From NCBI GenBank assembly GCA_007121455.1, contig SKKN01000003.1:1-64000 (forward strand): DNA of 64,000 nucleotides. The letters are read 5' to 3'. Made by a program: the position numbers and the translations under genes. Below are positions 7,921-15,560 of the stretch, in pieces. Positions within the stretch are counted from its first letter, which is position 1, and each line of letters opens with the position of its first letter. This DNA comes from Gemmatimonadota bacterium. GTDB lineage: Bacteria > Gemmatimonadota > Gemmatimonadetes > Longimicrobiales > Gaopeijiaceae. The notes beneath the pieces are model-generated. The model searched no databases. It had not been told where the DNA came from and saw only the letters and a list, made by a program, of their open reading frames with translations.

Positions 7921-9021
7921 TCAGGGGGAGCTGTCGGGCTCGCCGGTCCGCCGTCCATCGGAACGTTCGGCGGTGAGTGAGTGGGTTCGTGAAGTCTCGC
8001 GCACGACATCCGCCGGCGAAGCCGAAGCCACTCCAGGGATCCTCTCCCAGCCCATGCGTTCGCGCCGAGCGACAGAGCGTTCCGCCTCCCGAAGCCACGC
8101 CACGAGCAGGACACCGACCGCTGCGGCATAGACGATGCCCATCGGGACCCACATCAGCGCGCCCGCCACCTGCTGATCGAACATCAAGTCCAGGTTCCAC
8201 GCGGTCACCCCCGCCTCATGCGCCGGGTACCACGGTTCGGGGGCGAAGGTCATGAGCGCGCCCAGCGCTCCGCTCTGGAGCGCAGTGGCGAAGACGTAGA
8301 GGATGCCTGCTCCGTAGCCTGGCCATTTGTGGTGCGCACCCACCCGGACCAGGGCCCACCAGAAGAGAAGGGCAGTGAAGAAGAAGCTCGCGTGTTCGAG
8401 GTGATGGACGAGTGGACGCTCGAGCGCGGCCTCGTACAGGAAGGGTATGTGCCACGCCCATAACGCGCCGACGTGAAGCAGGAGAACGACCACGGGGTGG
8501 CTTGCGGCACGCCAGATTCGGCGGGCGGGCGAGACGTGCTTCCACGAGCGGCGAAAAGCCGCTCGAGCGGAATCCGGCAGCGCCCATAGATACGCGAGGG
8601 GGGGACGCCCGAGAACGAGGAGGGGAGCGGCCACCACCATCAGCAGGAGATGCTGGATCATGTGCACGGAGAAGAGCGCCTCGCCCACTGCATCCACGGG
8701 GGAGATCAGGGCGACGAACAGGGCCCAGATCCCCGCCAGGTAGCATCCGGCGGACCACCTCGCGATCCCCCGTCCTCGGCCGGCCGTCCGCCAGAGTCGC
8801 GAAACCCCTCGCACATAGACAGCCGTCATCGTCATCAGCACGAGCAGGATCCACGGGTCCCAGTTCCAGGCAGTCCATGCCTCGGCGGGTCCTACCGGAC
8901 CGACTCCATGCGCGATTGCAGCGTTCGGCGTCCCGATGCCTCCCCCGGCCACCAGCATGAGCACGAGCACGACCGGCCGCTGCCAGGTGTTCGTCCGTGG
9001 GCGAGCCCCCGGGATCGTCAC
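7921..9021 (-). CDS. ctaG: CtaG-type cytochrome c oxidase assembly factor
   Basis: A 366-residue membrane protein of the CtaG_caa3 family, needed in Bacillus for caa3 oxidase assembly and thought to act in copper handling. About seven hydrophobic helices follow a possible leader. Family marks include the histidine-rich helix SVHMIQHLLLMVVAAPLLVLG, the segment VVLLLHVGALWAWHIPFLYEAAL, and LVHHLEHASFFFTALLFWW. The C-terminal 60 residues are charged and poorly conserved. Translation starts at GTG 9021, two bases after the stop of the preceding gene. It is the last gene of the minus-strand respiratory operon, in keeping with an assembly role. Confidence 0.9.
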   Translation of the reverse strand: MTIPGARPRTNTWQRPVVLVLMLVAGGGIGTPNAAIAHGVGPVGPAEAWTAWNWDPWILLVLMTMTAVYVRGVSRLWRTAGRGRGIARWSAGCYLAGIWALFVALISPVDAVGEALFSVHMIQHLLLMVVAAPLLVLGRPPLAYLWALPDSARAAFRRSWKHVSPARRIWRAASHPVVVLLLHVGALWAWHIPFLYEAALERPLVHHLEHASFFFTALLFWWALVRVGAHHKWPGYGAGILYVFATALQSGALGALMTFAPEPWYPAHEAGVTAWNLDLMFDQQVAGALMWVPMGIVYAAAVGVLLVAWLREAERSVARRERMGWERIPGVASASPADVVRETSRTHSLTAERSDGRRTGEPDSSP

Positions 9022-9023
9022 GG

Positions 9024-9530
9024 TCAGTTGCGGCAGGAGAGGATTGCCCCTGCGCGCTCCAACAAGATGATCGGTGAATCCTGGATGGGGATGTGCCGAC
9101 AGGGGTCTTCCTGGAGGAACGTGGGTAGCGCCTCCACCAGGATCAGAGCCAAGAAAAAGGTGCTGATGGCGAGCCCCCCGAGCGCGAGGAATTTCCGGAC
9201 GTGAAGCCTCCGGGTCTCCACGTCCTCCTCCGCACCTCTGTGAGTCGGTGGGCCGGTCTCACCTCGGTTCGTCGGATCAGGGTGCGTGGAATCCATCCCC
9301 GCGCGGTGGAGGCGGCGATGCGAGATCCAGGCTGCCGCAACGGAGGCTGCCGCAACCCCGCCCGTGCCGATCGTCAGAAGGTGCAAAATGACCTCCTGGC
9401 CCGTGCGGCAGACGATCGGCACGACCGCATAGCTTGCCAGAAGGTGGGCAGCCCAGGCGAACATCCCACCGAGCACGCCGAACCAGAGGAGCGGGCCCCT
9501 CACCCTCGTACGGCCGGTTGCTGGGGGCAT
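9024..9530 (-). CDS. Small membrane protein in oxidase operon
   Basis: A 168-residue protein with hydrophobic helices near residues 14-35, 45-68 and 113-133, separated by a polar, charged loop. It ends in a soluble tail (QEDPCRHIPIQDSPIIL). No family is recognised with certainty. It lies between coxC and ctaG with gaps of 10 and 2 bases, so it is certainly co-transcribed with them. This position is often taken by small oxidase accessory or subunit-IV-like proteins, and that is the most reasonable guess. The two His/Cys motifs are too few to argue for a metal site. Confidence 0.7.
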   Translation of the reverse strand: MPPATGRTRVRGPLLWFGVLGGMFAWAAHLLASYAVVPIVCRTGQEVILHLLTIGTGGVAAASVAAAWISHRRLHRAGMDSTHPDPTNRGETGPPTHRGAEEDVETRRLHVRKFLALGGLAISTFFLALILVEALPTFLQEDPCRHIPIQDSPIILLERAGAILSCRN

Positions 9531-9540
9531 GGGGTGGCCT

Positions 9541-10164
9541 CTAAATGCGCGGGGCGAGATACTGCGTCGCGTAGAAGAAGAGCGAGCTCACCGCGACGAA
9601 GATCCAGTACACGAGAAGCGCCTGAACACCGGTGTGGCGCCTGGCGCCGAAGTGCCCGCGCTTGGCGAGGGCCCAGATCACCGACCCTGCAAGGAGGACC
9701 GTCACCACGTGCAATCCCGCGTACCCACCCATACTCCAGTTGAGCGACCCATAAGCATGGGTGTTCCAGAGGTCCTCCCGGTCCAGATAGCTTCGGACCT
9801 GGAGGGCGAGGTACAGGAATGCAAGGAGGAGGCCGAGTGGGAGCGCCCAGAGGAGTGGACCGGCACGATCGCGAGCGAGCGGTCGGAGTGCCACCCAGAC
9901 CGGGACGGGGCTCAGGAGGAGGAGGAGCTGGGCGACCGTGGGCTCGAGGAGTTCGGGAGGGGCGGTACCGGCCGGCGGCCATTCGGGCGCGCCGAGGCGC
10001 AGATAGAAGTAGCTCACCACGAAGAGGGAGGCGATCGTGGCCTCGATCACGACCAGGAGGATCGCCCCCCAGACGATCGGAGACTGGAACCCGGTGAGCT
10101 GTCGAGGAAGCGAGTGCTCTCCTGCAACCGGGGCATGCTCCGGCGGTCTCGGCGGCGGAGTCAT
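9541..10164 (-). CDS. coxC: Cytochrome c oxidase subunit III, five-helix form
   Basis: A 207-residue subunit III of heme-copper oxidase. Five transmembrane helices can be counted (about 31-53, 76-95, 105-123, 147-166 and 183-202). The helix VIEATIASLFVVSYFYLRLG carries the conserved glutamate, and GYAGLHVVTVLL contains the conserved histidine. Canonical subunit III has seven helices. The two missing N-terminal helices match the two extra helices at the end of ctaD, as in Bacillus-type oxidases. The ATG at 10164 overlaps the ctaD stop by four bases (ATGA). The longer open frame upstream is antiparallel shadow inside ctaD and is not part of the gene. Confidence 0.9.
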   Translation of the reverse strand: MTPPPRPPEHAPVAGEHSLPRQLTGFQSPIVWGAILLVVIEATIASLFVVSYFYLRLGAPEWPPAGTAPPELLEPTVAQLLLLLSPVPVWVALRPLARDRAGPLLWALPLGLLLAFLYLALQVRSYLDREDLWNTHAYGSLNWSMGGYAGLHVVTVLLAGSVIWALAKRGHFGARRHTGVQALLVYWIFVAVSSLFFYATQYLAPRI

Positions 10165-12062
10165 GGCCCCTCTCCCGCTGGCCAGTGCCAGGCCAGGAGC
10201 GCAAGGAATGCGAGTGCGAGGCCAACCGGAACGAGCGCCGTCGTCCACATCGCACCGATGAAGGCCACGGAGAGCGCCAAAGCGAGCCACATCGGCCATG
10301 GGGAGGGGCCTGGCAAGACGGCTCGTCCTTCCGCGTCGGCGGATACGACGCTCGTCGTGATGCTCTCCCGAAGCTCGTCGGACGGATCGGACAGCTCTTC
10401 CAGCCAGGGGGGCCTCGTGTCCATGCCGATCCCCGCGGACTCCCAGAGCGGGTCGCGACCTCGCACCACGGGCACGTCCGCGAAGTTGTAATTCGGCGGG
10501 GGAGATGTCGTGGCCCACTCGAGCGACCCGCCGCGCCAGGGGTCGGGTCCCGCCTCGGTACCACCTCGCCAACTCACCGCAACGTTGACCAGGAAAAGGA
10601 CCACGGAGAAGGCCATGAGAAAGGTGCCGAGAGTGGAGAGGAGATTCAGCCAGTCCCACCCCAGTCCCGGCAGGTAGGTGTACACGCGTCGCGGCATTCC
10701 TTCCAGGCCGGTGAGGTGCATCAGAAAGAACGTGGCGTTGAACCCGATGACGAAAAGCCAGAAGTGCCAACGTCCCAGTCGCTCGTTCAGCATTCGACCG
10801 GTGAACTTCGGAAACCAGAAGTAGACCGAGGCGAAGATGGGGAGCACGACCCCTCCGACCAGCACGTAGTGGAAGTGGGCGACGATGAAGTACGTGTCGT
10901 GGACCTGCCAGTTGAAGGGAACCGCCGCGATCATGATGCCCGTGATGCCACCGAGGATGAAGAGGGCGATGAAGCCGATTGCGAAGAGCATGGCAGTGGT
11001 GAGCCGCTCGAGGCTCCCGTTCCAGATCGTGCTGATCCACGAAAAGATCTGGATCGCGCTGGGGATGGTGATCAGCATGCTCGCAGCCGCAAAGAAGTTG
11101 AGCCCCACGAGCGCGATTCCGACCGTGTACATGTGGTGAACCCAGACCCCGAAGCTGAGCGTGCCGATGATCACGATCGAGGCCACGACGAGGGTGTATG
11201 CCGCGAGGGCCCGCTGCGCGAAGACGGGAATGATCATCGAAACGACACCCACGGCGGGCAGGAGCATGATGTAGACGTCGGGATGCCCGAAGAACCAGAA
11301 CAGGTGCTGCCAAAGAAAAGGATCACCGCCGGCGGCGATGTTGAAGAAGTGCGTGCCGGTGAACCGATCCAGAGCGAGCATGAGGCTCGTCAGCACGAGT
11401 GCCGGCATGGCAATGACGATCATGAGCGCGGTGATCAGCATCGTCCAGACGAACACCGGCATACGGTTCAGGGACATCCCGGGCGCGCGCATCTTGAGGA
11501 TTGTGACGATGATCTCCACGGCCGCTACCAGAGCCGAGACTTCCAGGAAGGTGATCATCGTCACCCAGAAGTCGATCCCCGCTCCGGGACGGAACCCCGG
11601 CCCGGTGAGAGGCGGGTAGTTGTACCAGCCGCTGTCGGGAGCCATGCCCAGGAGGTACGCTACGTACAGCGTCACGCCGGCGATGAGGAAGACCCAATAG
11701 CCGAAGAGATTCAGGCGTGGGAAAGCCATCTCCCGCGCACCGACCATGAGGGGCACCAGGTAGATGGCGAGCCCTTCCACGAAGGGCACGACGAAGAGGA
11801 ACATCATCGTCGAGCCATGCATCGTGAAGGTCTGGTTGTAGAAGTCCGGGGAGACCACGCCGAGCTGAGGAAGCGCGAGCTGGACGCGCATCACCACGGC
11901 CTCGAGACCGGCGAGGATGAAGAAGATGAATGCGGTGATCATGAACCGGAGCCCCACGGTCCGGTGATTCACCGCAGTCATGAAGCCCCAGATCCCCTTG
12001 GGGGAATCCCAGACCCGGGAGAGGCGCTCGTGGGACGGATGAGCCTCGGCCCTTTGATTCAC
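10161..12062 (-). CDS. ctaD: Cytochrome c oxidase subunit I, unusual proton-path residues
   Basis: The 633-residue catalytic subunit of an aa3/caa3-type oxidase. Ligands visible are His82 (TMHGS) and His398 for the low-spin heme, His396 for the high-spin heme, His260 with His309/310 for CuB, and the cross-link Tyr264 in GHPDVYI. The core has 12 helices, and two more follow at the C-terminus. Three proton-path positions differ from the textbook A-family enzymes. The K-path lysine of PTGIK is Gln338 (IPSAIQIFSW), the D-path entrance Asp is Glu111 (REMAFPR), and the gating Glu of GHPEV is Asp262. The gene starts with GTG, overlapping the coxB stop (GTGA). Confidence 0.95.
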   Translation of the reverse strand: MNQRAEAHPSHERLSRVWDSPKGIWGFMTAVNHRTVGLRFMITAFIFFILAGLEAVVMRVQLALPQLGVVSPDFYNQTFTMHGSTMMFLFVVPFVEGLAIYLVPLMVGAREMAFPRLNLFGYWVFLIAGVTLYVAYLLGMAPDSGWYNYPPLTGPGFRPGAGIDFWVTMITFLEVSALVAAVEIIVTILKMRAPGMSLNRMPVFVWTMLITALMIVIAMPALVLTSLMLALDRFTGTHFFNIAAGGDPFLWQHLFWFFGHPDVYIMLLPAVGVVSMIIPVFAQRALAAYTLVVASIVIIGTLSFGVWVHHMYTVGIALVGLNFFAAASMLITIPSAIQIFSWISTIWNGSLERLTTAMLFAIGFIALFILGGITGIMIAAVPFNWQVHDTYFIVAHFHYVLVGGVVLPIFASVYFWFPKFTGRMLNERLGRWHFWLFVIGFNATFFLMHLTGLEGMPRRVYTYLPGLGWDWLNLLSTLGTFLMAFSVVLFLVNVAVSWRGGTEAGPDPWRGGSLEWATTSPPPNYNFADVPVVRGRDPLWESAGIGMDTRPPWLEELSDPSDELRESITTSVVSADAEGRAVLPGPSPWPMWLALALSVAFIGAMWTTALVPVGLALAFLALLAWHWPAGEGP

Positions 12063-13069
12063 CGGAGCCCCTCCAGGTACCGTACGAGTGCGGCCAGGTC
12101 GGCGTCGTCGAGCGGCGTGGGCGGCATGCGGACCCCGGGCTTGAACCGATCAGGCTCCAAAATCCATTGGGCGAGGTGCTCCCTGTCGTTGGGGATCGTG
12201 AGCGCTCCGAGCGAGCTCCGGGATCCGAGGTCGGTGAGATCCGGCCCCGGGTTGCCGGCGAAGCGGGGCCGGCTGACTCCTCGAATCGCATGGCACGCCG
12301 AGCAGCCGGCTTCGAGGAAGACCTCGCGACCGCGAGCCGCCTCGGGATCGGTGGGCTCCGGGGGCGTGCCGCGCCGTGCATCGAGCCATTCCTCGAATTC
12401 CTCCGGGGGCGATGCCACCACGAGCAGCGCCATGTGCGCGTGCTGCACGCCGCAGAACTCGGTGCACTGACCGCGATAGAGGCCGGCTTCCTCCGCAAAG
12501 AGCCACAGCGTATTGAAACGGCCCGGGTTCATATCGAGCTTGCCCGGGGCGAGCTGGGGAATCCAGAAGCTGTGGATCACGTCGGCCGAGGTGATGTGCA
12601 CTTCCACCGGCTCTCCCACCGGAATGTGAATCTCGTTCGCCGTGACGACCCCGTGGTTCGGGTAGTGCACCTCCCACCAGAACTGGTGCCCCACGACTTC
12701 GAGCATGACCGTCGCCTCTTCTGGATGCTCGCTCACCGCGGTGCCCGCACGAACCGACAGCGTGAGAAACCCGATGAGGAAGAGCGTCGGGATTCCCACG
12801 CCGGCGATCAAGATGAAGGTCTGTTCCCTCGACGCGGTGTGGCGGCTCGTCTCCGGGGCGGCGCGTCGATGGGCTCGATGTACGGCGTAGAGGAGCCCGA
12901 GGATCGTGAGCGATGAGAGAATCCCGGTGCTGGTGAAGGCGATCCACCACAAACTCTCGATGGTGGCTGCTCCCGGGCTCCGCGGATCGAGAGCGGACTG
13001 CCACCCTCCACATCCGATACTCAGGAAAACCACGGCAACGGGGAGGCAGCGAAGCGTTGGCCGGATCAT
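12059..13069 (-). CDS. coxB: Cytochrome c oxidase subunit II with fused cytochrome c
   Basis: A 336-residue subunit II of caa3 type. It has a hydrophobic leader ending near Cys20 (a poor lipobox), two transmembrane helices, then the cupredoxin CuA domain. The aromatic/Cys-rich CuA segment is intact: QFWWEVHYP, DVIHSFWIP and QCTEFCGVQHAHM. After a proline-rich linker comes a cytochrome c domain with CSACH as the heme-attachment site and RMPPTP as the likely Met ligand. Electrons can thus enter from a tethered heme c without a soluble cytochrome. The ATG at 13069 overlaps the stop of the cytochrome b gene (ATGA). Confidence 0.95.
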   Translation of the reverse strand: MIRPTLRCLPVAVVFLSIGCGGWQSALDPRSPGAATIESLWWIAFTSTGILSSLTILGLLYAVHRAHRRAAPETSRHTASREQTFILIAGVGIPTLFLIGFLTLSVRAGTAVSEHPEEATVMLEVVGHQFWWEVHYPNHGVVTANEIHIPVGEPVEVHITSADVIHSFWIPQLAPGKLDMNPGRFNTLWLFAEEAGLYRGQCTEFCGVQHAHMALLVVASPPEEFEEWLDARRGTPPEPTDPEAARGREVFLEAGCSACHAIRGVSRPRFAGNPGPDLTDLGSRSSLGALTIPNDREHLAQWILEPDRFKPGVRMPPTPLDDADLAALVRYLEGLR

Positions 13070-14514
13070 CGGCCTTCCTCGTTCGCCGGGTCGTGCAGAT
13101 CCGCAGCCCACCTGAGGTAGGCGAGGATGGCTTCGACTTCCGCGGCCGTCAGCTGACCGTGATAGGCGGGCATGTTCCCAATGCCGACGATGATGCGAAC
13201 CGCCATCTCCTCGGGGGACAATCGCAGCGCCGCCGTCGTGAGGTCGGGGCCGTACGTCCCTCCCTCTCCCAGGACCACATGACAGAATTGGCAGCCCCTG
13301 AAGTGAAACACACCGGCTCCGGTCCGCGCCTCCGCGGGTGCATCGCGGAGCACCTCCTCCGCGACGGGTTCGGTCTCGAAGTCGGGGACCCAGTACGGGC
13401 GGGCGCCCAGCACGGTCAGTGTGGCCCACATGAGAAACGACGCTCCCACGAGAAAAACCGCCCAGGGGCGCCTGCCCGGGTGTCGCTCCCCTCCGCTGAA
13501 GAGGATTGGAAGGAGCAGAAGCGCCGGGATGAGCAGAATGGGCAGCCAGACTAGGACGAGTTGATCCAGTGCCGCGGGTTTGTACCAGATCAGGCTGTAG
13601 TACCAGAGGAAGAACCAATCCGGGTCCGGGATGGCCTCCACCGCCGCCGGATCCGGCGGGGGGCCTGGTCCTTTGGCTCCAAATGCGAGGGCGAGCCCCA
13701 GGATCGTGCTGAACACGAAGGCGACGAAGACCATCTCCCGCCACGTTGCGTCCGGCCAGTACGTGCTTCCGCCCTCGTTCTTGCGACGCTCGTACCACGC
13801 CCTGTACGAGGTGCGGTCGACCCTCTTGCCGGCCTCCGGGGGCTCGGAGATCCCGTTGCGAACAACGAGAAAGAGGTGGAAGCCGATCACGGCGAAGATC
13901 AAGAGCGGAAGCACGATGACATGGAGCGCGAAGAAGCGGCTGAGGGTCGCTCCCCCGATGCTCTCTCCTGCCATGATGAGTTCCATCAGATGCGAACCGA
14001 TCACCGGGACCCGTCCCGCCATTGTGGCCGCGACCGCCACCGTGCTGATCCCGTCCTCGTCCCAGCGCAGGAGTTGCCCGGTGAAGGCCATTGCGAGGGT
14101 GAGGAGCAGGAGGACTACGCCGCTGATCCAGTTGAGCTCACGTGGGAACTTGTAGGATCCTGTGAGAAAGACCCTGCTCATGTGCACGAAAACGAGAAGG
14201 ACCATCGCCGATGCACCGAAGAAGTGGAGGCCACGGACGAATCCCCCCCAAAAGACTTCGGTGTTTAGGTAGTTGAGGCTATCCCACGCATGGTCGGGAG
14301 CGGGGATGTAGTGGAGCGCGAGAGCTGCACCCGTGATCACCTGTGCGAGGAAGACGAACACGAGAGCCTGGCCGAAGACGTAGTACCAGCCCTTCCGGGA
14401 GCGCCCGACCTCCGGCGGGACCTTGTGTTCGTGGAGGAAGCGGTGGAGGGGGGCGAGCCCTGCCCGGTCGTAGAGCCAGTTGCCCATGCGTCGCAGGGTC
14501 TTCATCGAGCCCAC
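13066..14514 (-). CDS. Cytochrome b fused to a C-terminal cytochrome c
   Basis: A 482-residue quinol-oxidising subunit that joins a full-length cytochrome b (N-terminal b6-like and C-terminal subunit-IV-like parts) to one cytochrome c domain. Heme b ligands are His97/His111 and His198/His213, spaced 13 and 14 residues apart, the b6f-like pattern. The Qo-site motif, PEWY in most bc1 and b6f complexes, reads PDWF (residues 298-301). The c domain has CQFCH at 408-412 and a likely Met ligand in GNMPAYHG. GTG at 14514 has GGAGAGG at a good distance; an in-frame ATG lies at 14505. It follows the Rieske gene by 70 bases. Confidence 0.93.
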   Translation of the reverse strand: MGSMKTLRRMGNWLYDRAGLAPLHRFLHEHKVPPEVGRSRKGWYYVFGQALVFVFLAQVITGAALALHYIPAPDHAWDSLNYLNTEVFWGGFVRGLHFFGASAMVLLVFVHMSRVFLTGSYKFPRELNWISGVVLLLLTLAMAFTGQLLRWDEDGISTVAVAATMAGRVPVIGSHLMELIMAGESIGGATLSRFFALHVIVLPLLIFAVIGFHLFLVVRNGISEPPEAGKRVDRTSYRAWYERRKNEGGSTYWPDATWREMVFVAFVFSTILGLALAFGAKGPGPPPDPAAVEAIPDPDWFFLWYYSLIWYKPAALDQLVLVWLPILLIPALLLLPILFSGGERHPGRRPWAVFLVGASFLMWATLTVLGARPYWVPDFETEPVAEEVLRDAPAEARTGAGVFHFRGCQFCHVVLGEGGTYGPDLTTAALRLSPEEMAVRIIVGIGNMPAYHGQLTAAEVEAILAYLRWAADLHDPANEEGR

Positions 14515-14584: not shown

Positions 14585-15169
14585 TCAGCCTTCTTCCCGC
14601 GGAACGGGCACCCCGATTGCCTGCACCTCAACGGCGCCGTCCCGGACTCGAACCGGGTGCTCGTCCAGAGGTCGGGGCGGGGGCCCGGCCGCTACGGCGC
14701 CGTTCGGGTAGAACGCGCCTCCATGGCAAGGGCACATGAAGAGCTGGGCCCCTGGCTCCCACCGGACGGGACATCCCACATGCGTGCAGTAGCTCGTGAA
14801 GGCGGTGAACCGGGCTTCATCCTCTCTTCGCAGCCATGCCGCGTTCCGTGAGGCGAAGCCGGCCCATGGAAGGGGACTTGGGTCCCGGTAGGTGACCTGG
14901 ATCGTGGCACCGACCGGAAAGTCCTCGACACGGCCGACGCTCCTCCAGACCGGAGGGTCTCGTCGTCGAAGCGGAGAGAGGAACATCGCGATCCAGGGCA
15001 CCGTCATCGCGGCACCGAGGACTGCACCGATTCCGACACTGAGCCAGGTGAGGAAGCCTCGTCGATTCGAGGCGGCGGATGCGCACCCATCCGTTCCCGC
15101 TCCCTCACGGTCTTGCCCCTGGGCGCGCTCGTCGGTCGAGTCCTTTGCGTCTTTGCGAAATCTCGTCAT
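14585..15169 (-). CDS. Rieske iron-sulfur protein of the quinol:cytochrome c complex
   Basis: A 194-residue Rieske protein and first gene of the respiratory operon. A single membrane anchor (about residues 43-65) follows an RRGFL motif typical of Tat-dependent Rieske insertion. The 2Fe-2S ligands lie in CTHVGC and CPCHGG, with the conserved disulfide cysteines in the same boxes. The ATG at 15169 is chosen over an upstream TTG because AGGGAG sits immediately before it. The protein transfers electrons from quinol at the cytochrome b Qo site to the heme c domain encoded by the next gene. Confidence 0.93.
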   Translation of the reverse strand: MTRFRKDAKDSTDERAQGQDREGAGTDGCASAASNRRGFLTWLSVGIGAVLGAAMTVPWIAMFLSPLRRRDPPVWRSVGRVEDFPVGATIQVTYRDPSPLPWAGFASRNAAWLRREDEARFTAFTSYCTHVGCPVRWEPGAQLFMCPCHGGAFYPNGAVAAGPPPRPLDEHPVRVRDGAVEVQAIGVPVPREEG

Positions 15170-15560
15170 GGCTCCCTCGAGGGGGAGCAAGATGCGGACC
15201 TCAGTACCTCACGGGAGTAATTGTGCGGGATCCGCTGCTCGTGTCGAGTAGGTGCGGCTCCCGCGCGATCGGAGAATGGGTTCGGCCCCCCGGAACTGTG
15301 GTCGGGGCGCATTCCCTGTCGGACGCGTGCCACAATCCACTGCTGCATTAAACCCGCGATCTGAGGAGCGCAGCCGACAGGTGAGCGCGCCGCGCAGGGG
15401 TTGTGAGCGTTGGTGGAGCCCCCGGTCCCGAGCCCGCCGTGGCTTCCAGTGCGAACTGATTGGCCCTGATCTTGCGCTTTCGCCTTCACACCTCACTCGC
15501 CGTAAGGGGGTGCGGATCCACAGACCCGCAAGCGCCACAGATACCTGAGGAGGAGCTCCC
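15170..15560. other. 391-bp divergent intergenic region
   Basis: This stretch separates the minus-strand respiratory operon from the plus-strand gene at 15561 and must carry promoters for both. I see no coding signal, no tRNA-like fold and no convincing operator. The only clear element is the AGGAGGAG ribosome-binding site just before 15561. Confidence 0.5.

What the first reader, a model, noticed from the sequence alone, without database searches (positions are those of the whole stretch)
10161..12062. Oxidase subunit I with altered proton pathways
CtaD keeps all heme, CuB and Tyr264 residues but carries Gln338 where A-family oxidases have the K-path lysine (IPSAIQIFSW against the usual VPTGIKVFSW). 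It also has Glu111 in place of the D-path entrance Asp, and Asp262 in place of the gating Glu of GHPEV. Lysine loss blocks many studied A-type oxidases, so this may be a naturally rewired pump.
Basis: partly seen in the sequence, partly recalled or inferred. Interest (0 to 1): 0.72.

Follow-up and report, generated by a model that had tools for sequence, protein, structure and literature searches.

The report
Respiratory oxidase lacking one proton channel
This is an oxygen-consuming respiratory enzyme that has lost one of the two textbook routes by which such enzymes take up protons, as has its whole branch of relatives, and it has gained three acidic residues in or near the other route, so it may be a naturally occurring case of the impaired-pump mutants that laboratories build on purpose.

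Summary
The residues are real. The gene (minus strand, 12062-10161, 633 aa) has Q338, E111 and D262 where Paracoccus has K354, D124 and E278, with all six metal-binding His and the Tyr intact. It is not a one-off. Among 122 related A-family subunits I, all 76 lacking the K-path lysine form one fully supported clade. It includes coxMNOP-type oxidases of Rhizobium, Sinorhizobium, Agrobacterium, Bradyrhizobium and Caballeronia. The K-path entrance Glu of subunit II is lost in the same operons (0 of 72, against 40 of 40 in operons with Lys), so the whole pathway is gone. D124E and E278D are conservative swaps fixed in the window's 7-genus subfamily. Best reading: an active cytochrome c oxidase, always (where checked) beside a canonical one, that takes all protons through a glutamate-rich D-type route, probably with reduced or no pumping. 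K-channel loss in family A is already reported; I found no report of the subunit II co-loss or the glutamates. H+/e- was not measured.

The parts
10161..12062 (-). ctaD (cytochrome c oxidase subunit I, 633 aa), A-family haem-copper oxidase without K-path lysine; two weak C-terminal helices (591-625) resemble a fused CtaF/COX4 tail
   Evidence: Pfam COX1 1.2e-150; NCBIfam CtaD_CoxA above cut-off
11049..11051 (-). Q338 codon at the K354 (Pd) / K362 (Rs) K-path lysine site
11730..11732 (-). E111 codon at the D124 (Pd) D-path entrance
11277..11279 (-). D262 codon at the E278 (Pd) gating glutamate
11514..11516 (-). E183 codon at N199 (Pd) / N207 (Rs), D-channel lining
   Evidence: Glu in 51/62 of derived K-less clade, 0/46 of K-bearing
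11541..11543 (-). E174 codon at G190 (Pd), helix IV; invariant signature of derived K-less clade
   Evidence: 62/62 vs 0/46
11775..11777 (-). E96 codon, helix II, one turn from the N113 (Pd) site
   Evidence: Glu in 52/62 vs 0/46
11763..11765 (-). I100 codon at N113 (Pd) / N121 (Rs) of the asparagine gate
11271..11273 (-). Y264 codon, active-site tyrosine retained
12059..13069 (-). ctaC (subunit II, 336 aa) with CuA motif and fused C-terminal cytochrome c; K-path entrance Glu replaced by Leu87 (12809-12811)
9541..10164 (-). ctaE (subunit III, 207 aa, short form)
   Evidence: Pfam COX3 3.6e-14
9024..9530 (-). small membrane protein of the operon, no family match, conserved in relatives at this place
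7921..9021 (-). ctaG, Caa3_CtaG-type copper assembly factor
   Evidence: (2.7e-62)
13066..14514 (-). cytochrome b fused to a c-type haem domain (quinol:cytochrome c branch)
14585..15190 (-). Rieske iron-sulfur protein

Best explanation
The gene encodes the catalytic subunit of an active cytochrome c:O2 oxidoreductase of A-family descent that works without a K-pathway. It receives electrons from a bc complex encoded in the same operon, through the cytochrome c fused to subunit II. The catalytic centre is unchanged. Chemical protons, and any pumped ones, enter by one modified D-type route: E111 at the mouth, N118, E183 in place of the gate asparagine, E96 and E174 higher in helices II and IV, then D262 beside the active site. 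Shown here: loss of the K-path in both subunits, its single origin in the sampled tree, the gain and conservation of the three glutamates, and purifying selection. Inferred: that these glutamates carry protons, and that pumping is reduced or absent because an acid in the asparagine-gate region decouples model oxidases.
For: K354 absent in 76/76 clade members and present in 46/46 outside; one change on the tree. Subunit II E78 present in 40/40 K-bearing operons and absent in 72/72 K-less ones (hand count of the printed table). E174 62/62, E96 52/62, E183 51/62 in the derived clade, 0/46 in K-bearing enzymes. E183 and E96 were lost together in about 4 of 7 independent contrasts, never in opposite directions (not significant). 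N207 (Rs) is listed as D-channel lining (PMC10341450). D132/N121/N139 mutations decouple pumping (PMC4321873), S197D in R. sphaeroides abolishes pumping (PMC7341133), and Paracoccus N131D is a decoupled structure (3ehb). Ligands and Tyr invariant. Operon conserved in the subfamily. Fold Z 54.9 to E. coli bo3 and about 53 to R. sphaeroides aa3.
Against: No biochemistry and no coordinates: side-chain geometry could not be measured, and by helical periodicity E174 may face away from the water chain. Some members of the same clade have lost E183, E96 and the D124 acid (e.g. Caballeronia L043: V, Q, S), so this chain cannot be the universal solution. The basal K-less branch has no extra glutamates at all, and many of its members have Trp instead of E278. 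Whether an N->E at this site decouples an enzyme that lacks the K-path is unknown.
Confidence: 0.55

Rival explanations
1. Non-pumping oxidase that takes its chemical protons from the periplasmic side, as cytochrome c-dependent NO reductases do. The N-side routes have degenerated and the new glutamates serve structure or stability.
For: Both canonical N-side entrances vary or are lost in parts of the clade: D124 is N in 17 and S in 3 of 62, and E278 is W in 10 of 14 basal members. D132N mutants are thought to draw protons back through the exit route (PMC4321873). Where both forms were visible, genomes with the Gln form also carried a Lys-bearing oxidase.
Against: In the window subfamily a carboxylate is kept at both ends of the D-path and the polar residues between are largely kept (E111, N118, S176, T187, D262). 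Invariance of E174 suggests a functional role.
Confidence: 0.2
2. A normal pump whose K-path still works through water and Gln338, with Y264, S275 and S335 kept.
For: Y264, S275 and S335 are retained; 60 of 62 derived members have Gln.
Against: Two orthologues in the window's own subfamily have Trp at the site; Ala or Ser occur in the basal branch; the subunit II entrance Glu is gone in all 72 operons. Published work holds that K-path delivery needs K362 (PMC10341450).
Confidence: 0.1
3. A lysine or other carrier from a neighbouring position or subunit fills the K-path.
For: K-less enzymes have basic residues R39 and K/R190 that most K-bearing ones lack.
Against: R39 (helix I) and K190 (end of helix IV) align near the N-side ends of the D-channel helices, not the K-path helices VI-VIII; no new charged residue occurs in helices VI-VIII.
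Confidence: 0.05
4. A nitric oxide reductase derived from an A-family oxidase.
For: Known NO reductases of this superfamily lack the channels (general knowledge).
Against: Those lack the active-site Tyr or alter the ligands (general knowledge); here Tyr and all six His are invariant in 76/76, and CuA, subunit III and CtaG are present.
Confidence: 0.03
5. Sequencing error or decaying gene.
For: The assembly is in 80 contigs.
Against: Seven independent genera share the changes; dN/dS is about 0.15-0.2.
Confidence: 0.01

Closest known systems
coxMNOP / 'COX operon type a-II' (A1 subtype a) oxidases of Rhizobium, Sinorhizobium, Bradyrhizobium, Pseudomonas
   Same: Same clade; same operon order coxB-ctaD-short coxC-small membrane protein-CtaG; same K354Q with E96/E174/E183 in R. 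etli NXC12, S. meliloti pSymB, A. fabrum, B. barranii and D. shibae
   Different: Window subfamily has D124E and E278D and carries Rieske and cytochrome b genes upstream; rhizobial copies have D or N at the entrance and keep Glu278
K-channel-less family A oxidases noted by Degli Esposti et al. 2021 (PMC8239418)
   Same: Natural loss of the K-channel in family A, read from sequence
   Different: That text treats archaeal COX1 and counts losses; the subunit II co-loss and glutamate gains are not described in the part I could read (its supplementary figure was not available)
Mycobacterium smegmatis aa3 of the III2-IV2 supercomplex (6adq, 6hwh)
   Same: Closest solved sequence; oxidase working with a dedicated bc complex
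   Different: Has K-path Lys, D-path Asp and gating Glu; bc partner is a different type
Decoupled laboratory mutants of Paracoccus / Rhodobacter aa3 (e.g. 3ehb, N131D)
   Same: Acid placed in the asparagine-gate region of the D-channel
   Different: Single engineered change at N131 (not N199) in an enzyme that keeps its K-path

Membership tests
A-family haem-copper oxygen reductase (by descent and fold) | Six His ligands and GHPxVY cross-link Tyr | tested here: met
A-family haem-copper oxygen reductase (by descent and fold) | Fold and nearest relatives are A-family | tested here: met
A1 type as fixed by proton-channel fingerprints | K-channel: Lys in subunit I and Glu in subunit II | tested here: not met
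   Q338 and Leu87(II)
A1 type as fixed by proton-channel fingerprints | D-channel: entrance Asp, Asn gate, gating Glu | tested here: not met
   E111, I100/N118/E183, D262 (carboxylates kept at both ends)
COX operon type a-II / coxMNOP | Gene order coxB-ctaD-short COX3-CtaG(Caa3) | tested here: met
COX operon type a-II / coxMNOP | Subunit I groups with coxMNOP-type subunits I | tested here: met
   inside the 62-row derived clade (SH-aLRT 98)
COX operon type a-II / coxMNOP | COX1 fused to a COX4/CtaF-like tail | tested here: inconclusive
   two low-confidence helices at 591-625; no Pfam match
NO reductases derived from oxidases | Loss of active-site Tyr | tested here: not met
   Tyr in 76/76
Proton-pumping cytochrome c oxidase | H+/e- near 1 | not testable with these tools
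   needs purified enzyme

The most novel reading that the evidence does not exclude
A widespread clade of A-family oxygen reductases has dropped the K-path in both subunits and replaced the asparagine-gated D-channel by a buried glutamate route (E96/E174/E183). All protons move by one pathway, with a changed (perhaps zero) pumping stoichiometry: a natural decoupled oxidase kept beside a canonical pump to discard electrons at low energy cost.
Probability: 0.4. Interest if true: 0.8.

Novelty: new variant of a known kind. Interest (0 to 1): 0.62.

Why it matters
The two-channel scheme and the link between the asparagine gate and pumping rest mainly on mutants of a few model enzymes. A whole clade that lives without the K-path and with acids where laboratory mutations decouple the pump would let both ideas be tested on enzymes shaped by selection, in tractable bacteria such as Sinorhizobium and Rhizobium. 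It would also warn against annotating every ctaD as a full proton pump in energy budgets.

Tried and rejected
Plus-strand ORF at the stated coordinates: a long antisense shadow frame, ignored. Replacement Lys in the K-path: none found among helix residues. Sequencing error or pseudogene: rejected. NO reductase: rejected on the invariant Tyr and ligands. Functional Gln: unlikely because Trp, Ala or Ser replace it. Side-chain distances: not obtainable, since the AlphaFold model (mean pLDDT 86.6) gave no coordinates and PDB files are not held. Paper searches for K-less A-family biochemistry, coxN channel residues and mutant tables gave little; key subscription papers and supplementary figures were not readable. 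The plasmid copy in Gemmatirosa is a canonical Lys-bearing oxidase, not a K-less one.

Full report
WHAT IS THERE. The reading frame is on the minus strand, 12062 to 10161, 633 aa. It is subunit I of a haem-copper oxidase: Pfam COX1 1.2e-150 and NCBIfam CtaD_CoxA above its cut-off. It lies in a tight minus-strand operon: Rieske protein (14585-15190), cytochrome b fused to a cytochrome c domain (13066-14514), ctaC with fused cytochrome c (12059-13069), ctaD, short ctaE (9541-10164), a small membrane protein (9024-9530) and ctaG (7921-9021). The order is conserved in relatives of the same family wherever the contig reaches, including Rieske and cytochrome b in four of them. The host assembly (3.5 Mb, 95.6% complete) has two further A-family oxidases with the usual Lys, Asp and Glu, and one B-type oxidase.

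CHECK OF THE OBSERVATION. I aligned the protein with P. denitrificans CtaD; the sequence I used matches PDB 1ar1 exactly. K354->Q338, D124->E111, E278->D262, Y280->Y264, and all six His ligands are kept. In R. sphaeroides numbering N199 is N207, one of the residues that line the D-channel, and N113/N131 (N121/N139) form the asparagine gate (PMC10341450).

NOT A ONE-OFF. Six orthologues from other genera of the same family (73-79% identity) all have E111 and D262; four have Gln and two have Trp at the Lys site. Relatives on named plasmids (Azospirillum, Catenovulum, Sinorhizobium, Caballeronia, Mesorhizobium, Peteryoungia) also have Gln, as do R. etli NXC12, S. meliloti pSymB, A. fabrum, B. barranii and D. 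shibae. A scan of named genomes gave 80 more loci. In a tree of 122 rows with the trait columns removed, all 76 Lys-less rows form one clade with support 100, and the trait needs a single change. The sample was picked by similarity to the window protein, so this does not exclude separate Lys losses elsewhere; Degli Esposti et al. infer several within family A under one rooting (PMC8239418).

THE K-PATH IS GONE IN BOTH SUBUNITS. In Paracoccus the K-path starts at Glu78 of subunit II. I aligned subunit II from the same loci (reference checked against 1qle/1ar1). All 40 operons with Lys have this Glu; none of 72 Lys-less operons has it (window: Leu87) (hand count of the printed table). This is independent evidence from a second gene, and it also argues that the Gln is not a working substitute.

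WHAT REPLACED IT. Comparing columns, the derived Lys-less clade (62 rows) has Glu at window position 174 in 62/62, at 96 in 52/62 and at 183 in 51/62; in 46 Lys-bearing rows each is 0. At the N113 site 53 of 62 have Ile, Val or Leu. The basal 14 Lys-less rows keep the asparagine gate (one has Ile at N113) and lack these glutamates; ten of them have Trp where the gating Glu should be. If the root lies among the Lys-bearing rows, the order of events is K-path loss first, glutamate gain second. E183 and E96 tend to be lost together, but the test cannot reach significance. Basic residues R39 and K/R190 also mark Lys-less enzymes. The subfamily of the window then exchanged Asp124 for Glu and Glu278 for Asp, keeping a carboxylate at both ends.

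HOW IT PROBABLY WORKS. The catalytic centre, CuA and the fused cytochrome c are intact and the gene is under purifying selection (dN 0.15-0.20, dS 0.9-1.1), so an active cytochrome c:O2 oxidoreductase is the safe core. In canonical enzymes the D-channel carries all pumped and some chemical protons, and the K-channel one or two (PMC8079940; PMC8239185). Without K, all must come through a D-type route or from the other side. The simplest route uses E111, N118, E183, E96, E174 and D262. Acids in this region matter: changes at D132, N121 or N139 decouple pumping (PMC4321873), S197D abolishes it (PMC7341133), and 3ehb is a decoupled Asn-gate Asp mutant. From memory, N207D in R. sphaeroides has the same effect. 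I therefore expect reduced or no pumping, but this is inference. The glutamate route cannot be universal, because some clade members (e.g. Caballeronia L040, L043) lack E183, E96 and the entrance acid.

PHYSIOLOGY. In 200 genomes of the phylum, every genome listed with the Gln motif in an oxidase context also listed a Lys motif (list truncated, read by eye). R. etli coxMNOP mutants had no growth defect, and other cytochrome c oxidases could not replace Cta plus Cyo (PMC4274787). Many rhizobial copies sit beside PQQ- or GMC-type dehydrogenases, an FdhF/YdeP oxidoreductase, and cytochromes c. An accessory, perhaps energetically cheap, electron outlet fits; the window's version has its own bc branch.

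WHAT IS KNOWN AND WHAT IS NEW. Known: the coxMNOP / type a-II operon (PMC4013037, PMC6431628) and K-channel loss in family A (PMC8239418). Not found in the literature I could search: the strict co-loss of the subunit II Glu, the glutamate signature, and the D124E/E278D subfamily. By descent and fold this is an A-family oxidase; by the channel fingerprints used to define A1 it fails. I rate it a new variant of a known kind.

Noticed in passing
L023, L059, L060, L066, L067, L073, L074, L021, L056, L065 (ctaD): Basal Lys-less branch with Trp at the gating Glu position (GHPWVY) and Ala, Gln or Ser at the Lys site, in Burkholderia, Caballeronia, Rhodanobacter, Methylobacter and others; both proton routes lack their key residue.
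   Followed up: partly
window 13609-13629 (-): Cytochrome b of the operon has PDWF where quinol-oxidising cytochromes b usually have PEWY (or PDWY), and carries a fused C-terminal c-type haem domain.
   Followed up: no
window 11493-11495 and 11946-11948 (-): K190 and R39: basic residues near the N-side, present in most Lys-less and absent from nearly all Lys-bearing relatives; possible electrostatic partners of the new glutamates.
   Followed up: partly
L039, L041, L134, L137, L138, L139: Lys-less oxidase operons on rhizobial and roseobacter plasmids next to PQQ-, GMC- or FdhF/YdeP-type oxidoreductases and small cytochromes c, suggesting a periplasmic electron outlet.
   Followed up: no
L130 (G000:C41:155500-174500): The same genome has two canonical A-family oxidases about 6 kb apart in opposite orientation.
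   Followed up: no
window 10185-12470 (+): A 761-codon open frame antisense to ctaD/ctaC, most likely a high-GC shadow frame.
   Followed up: no
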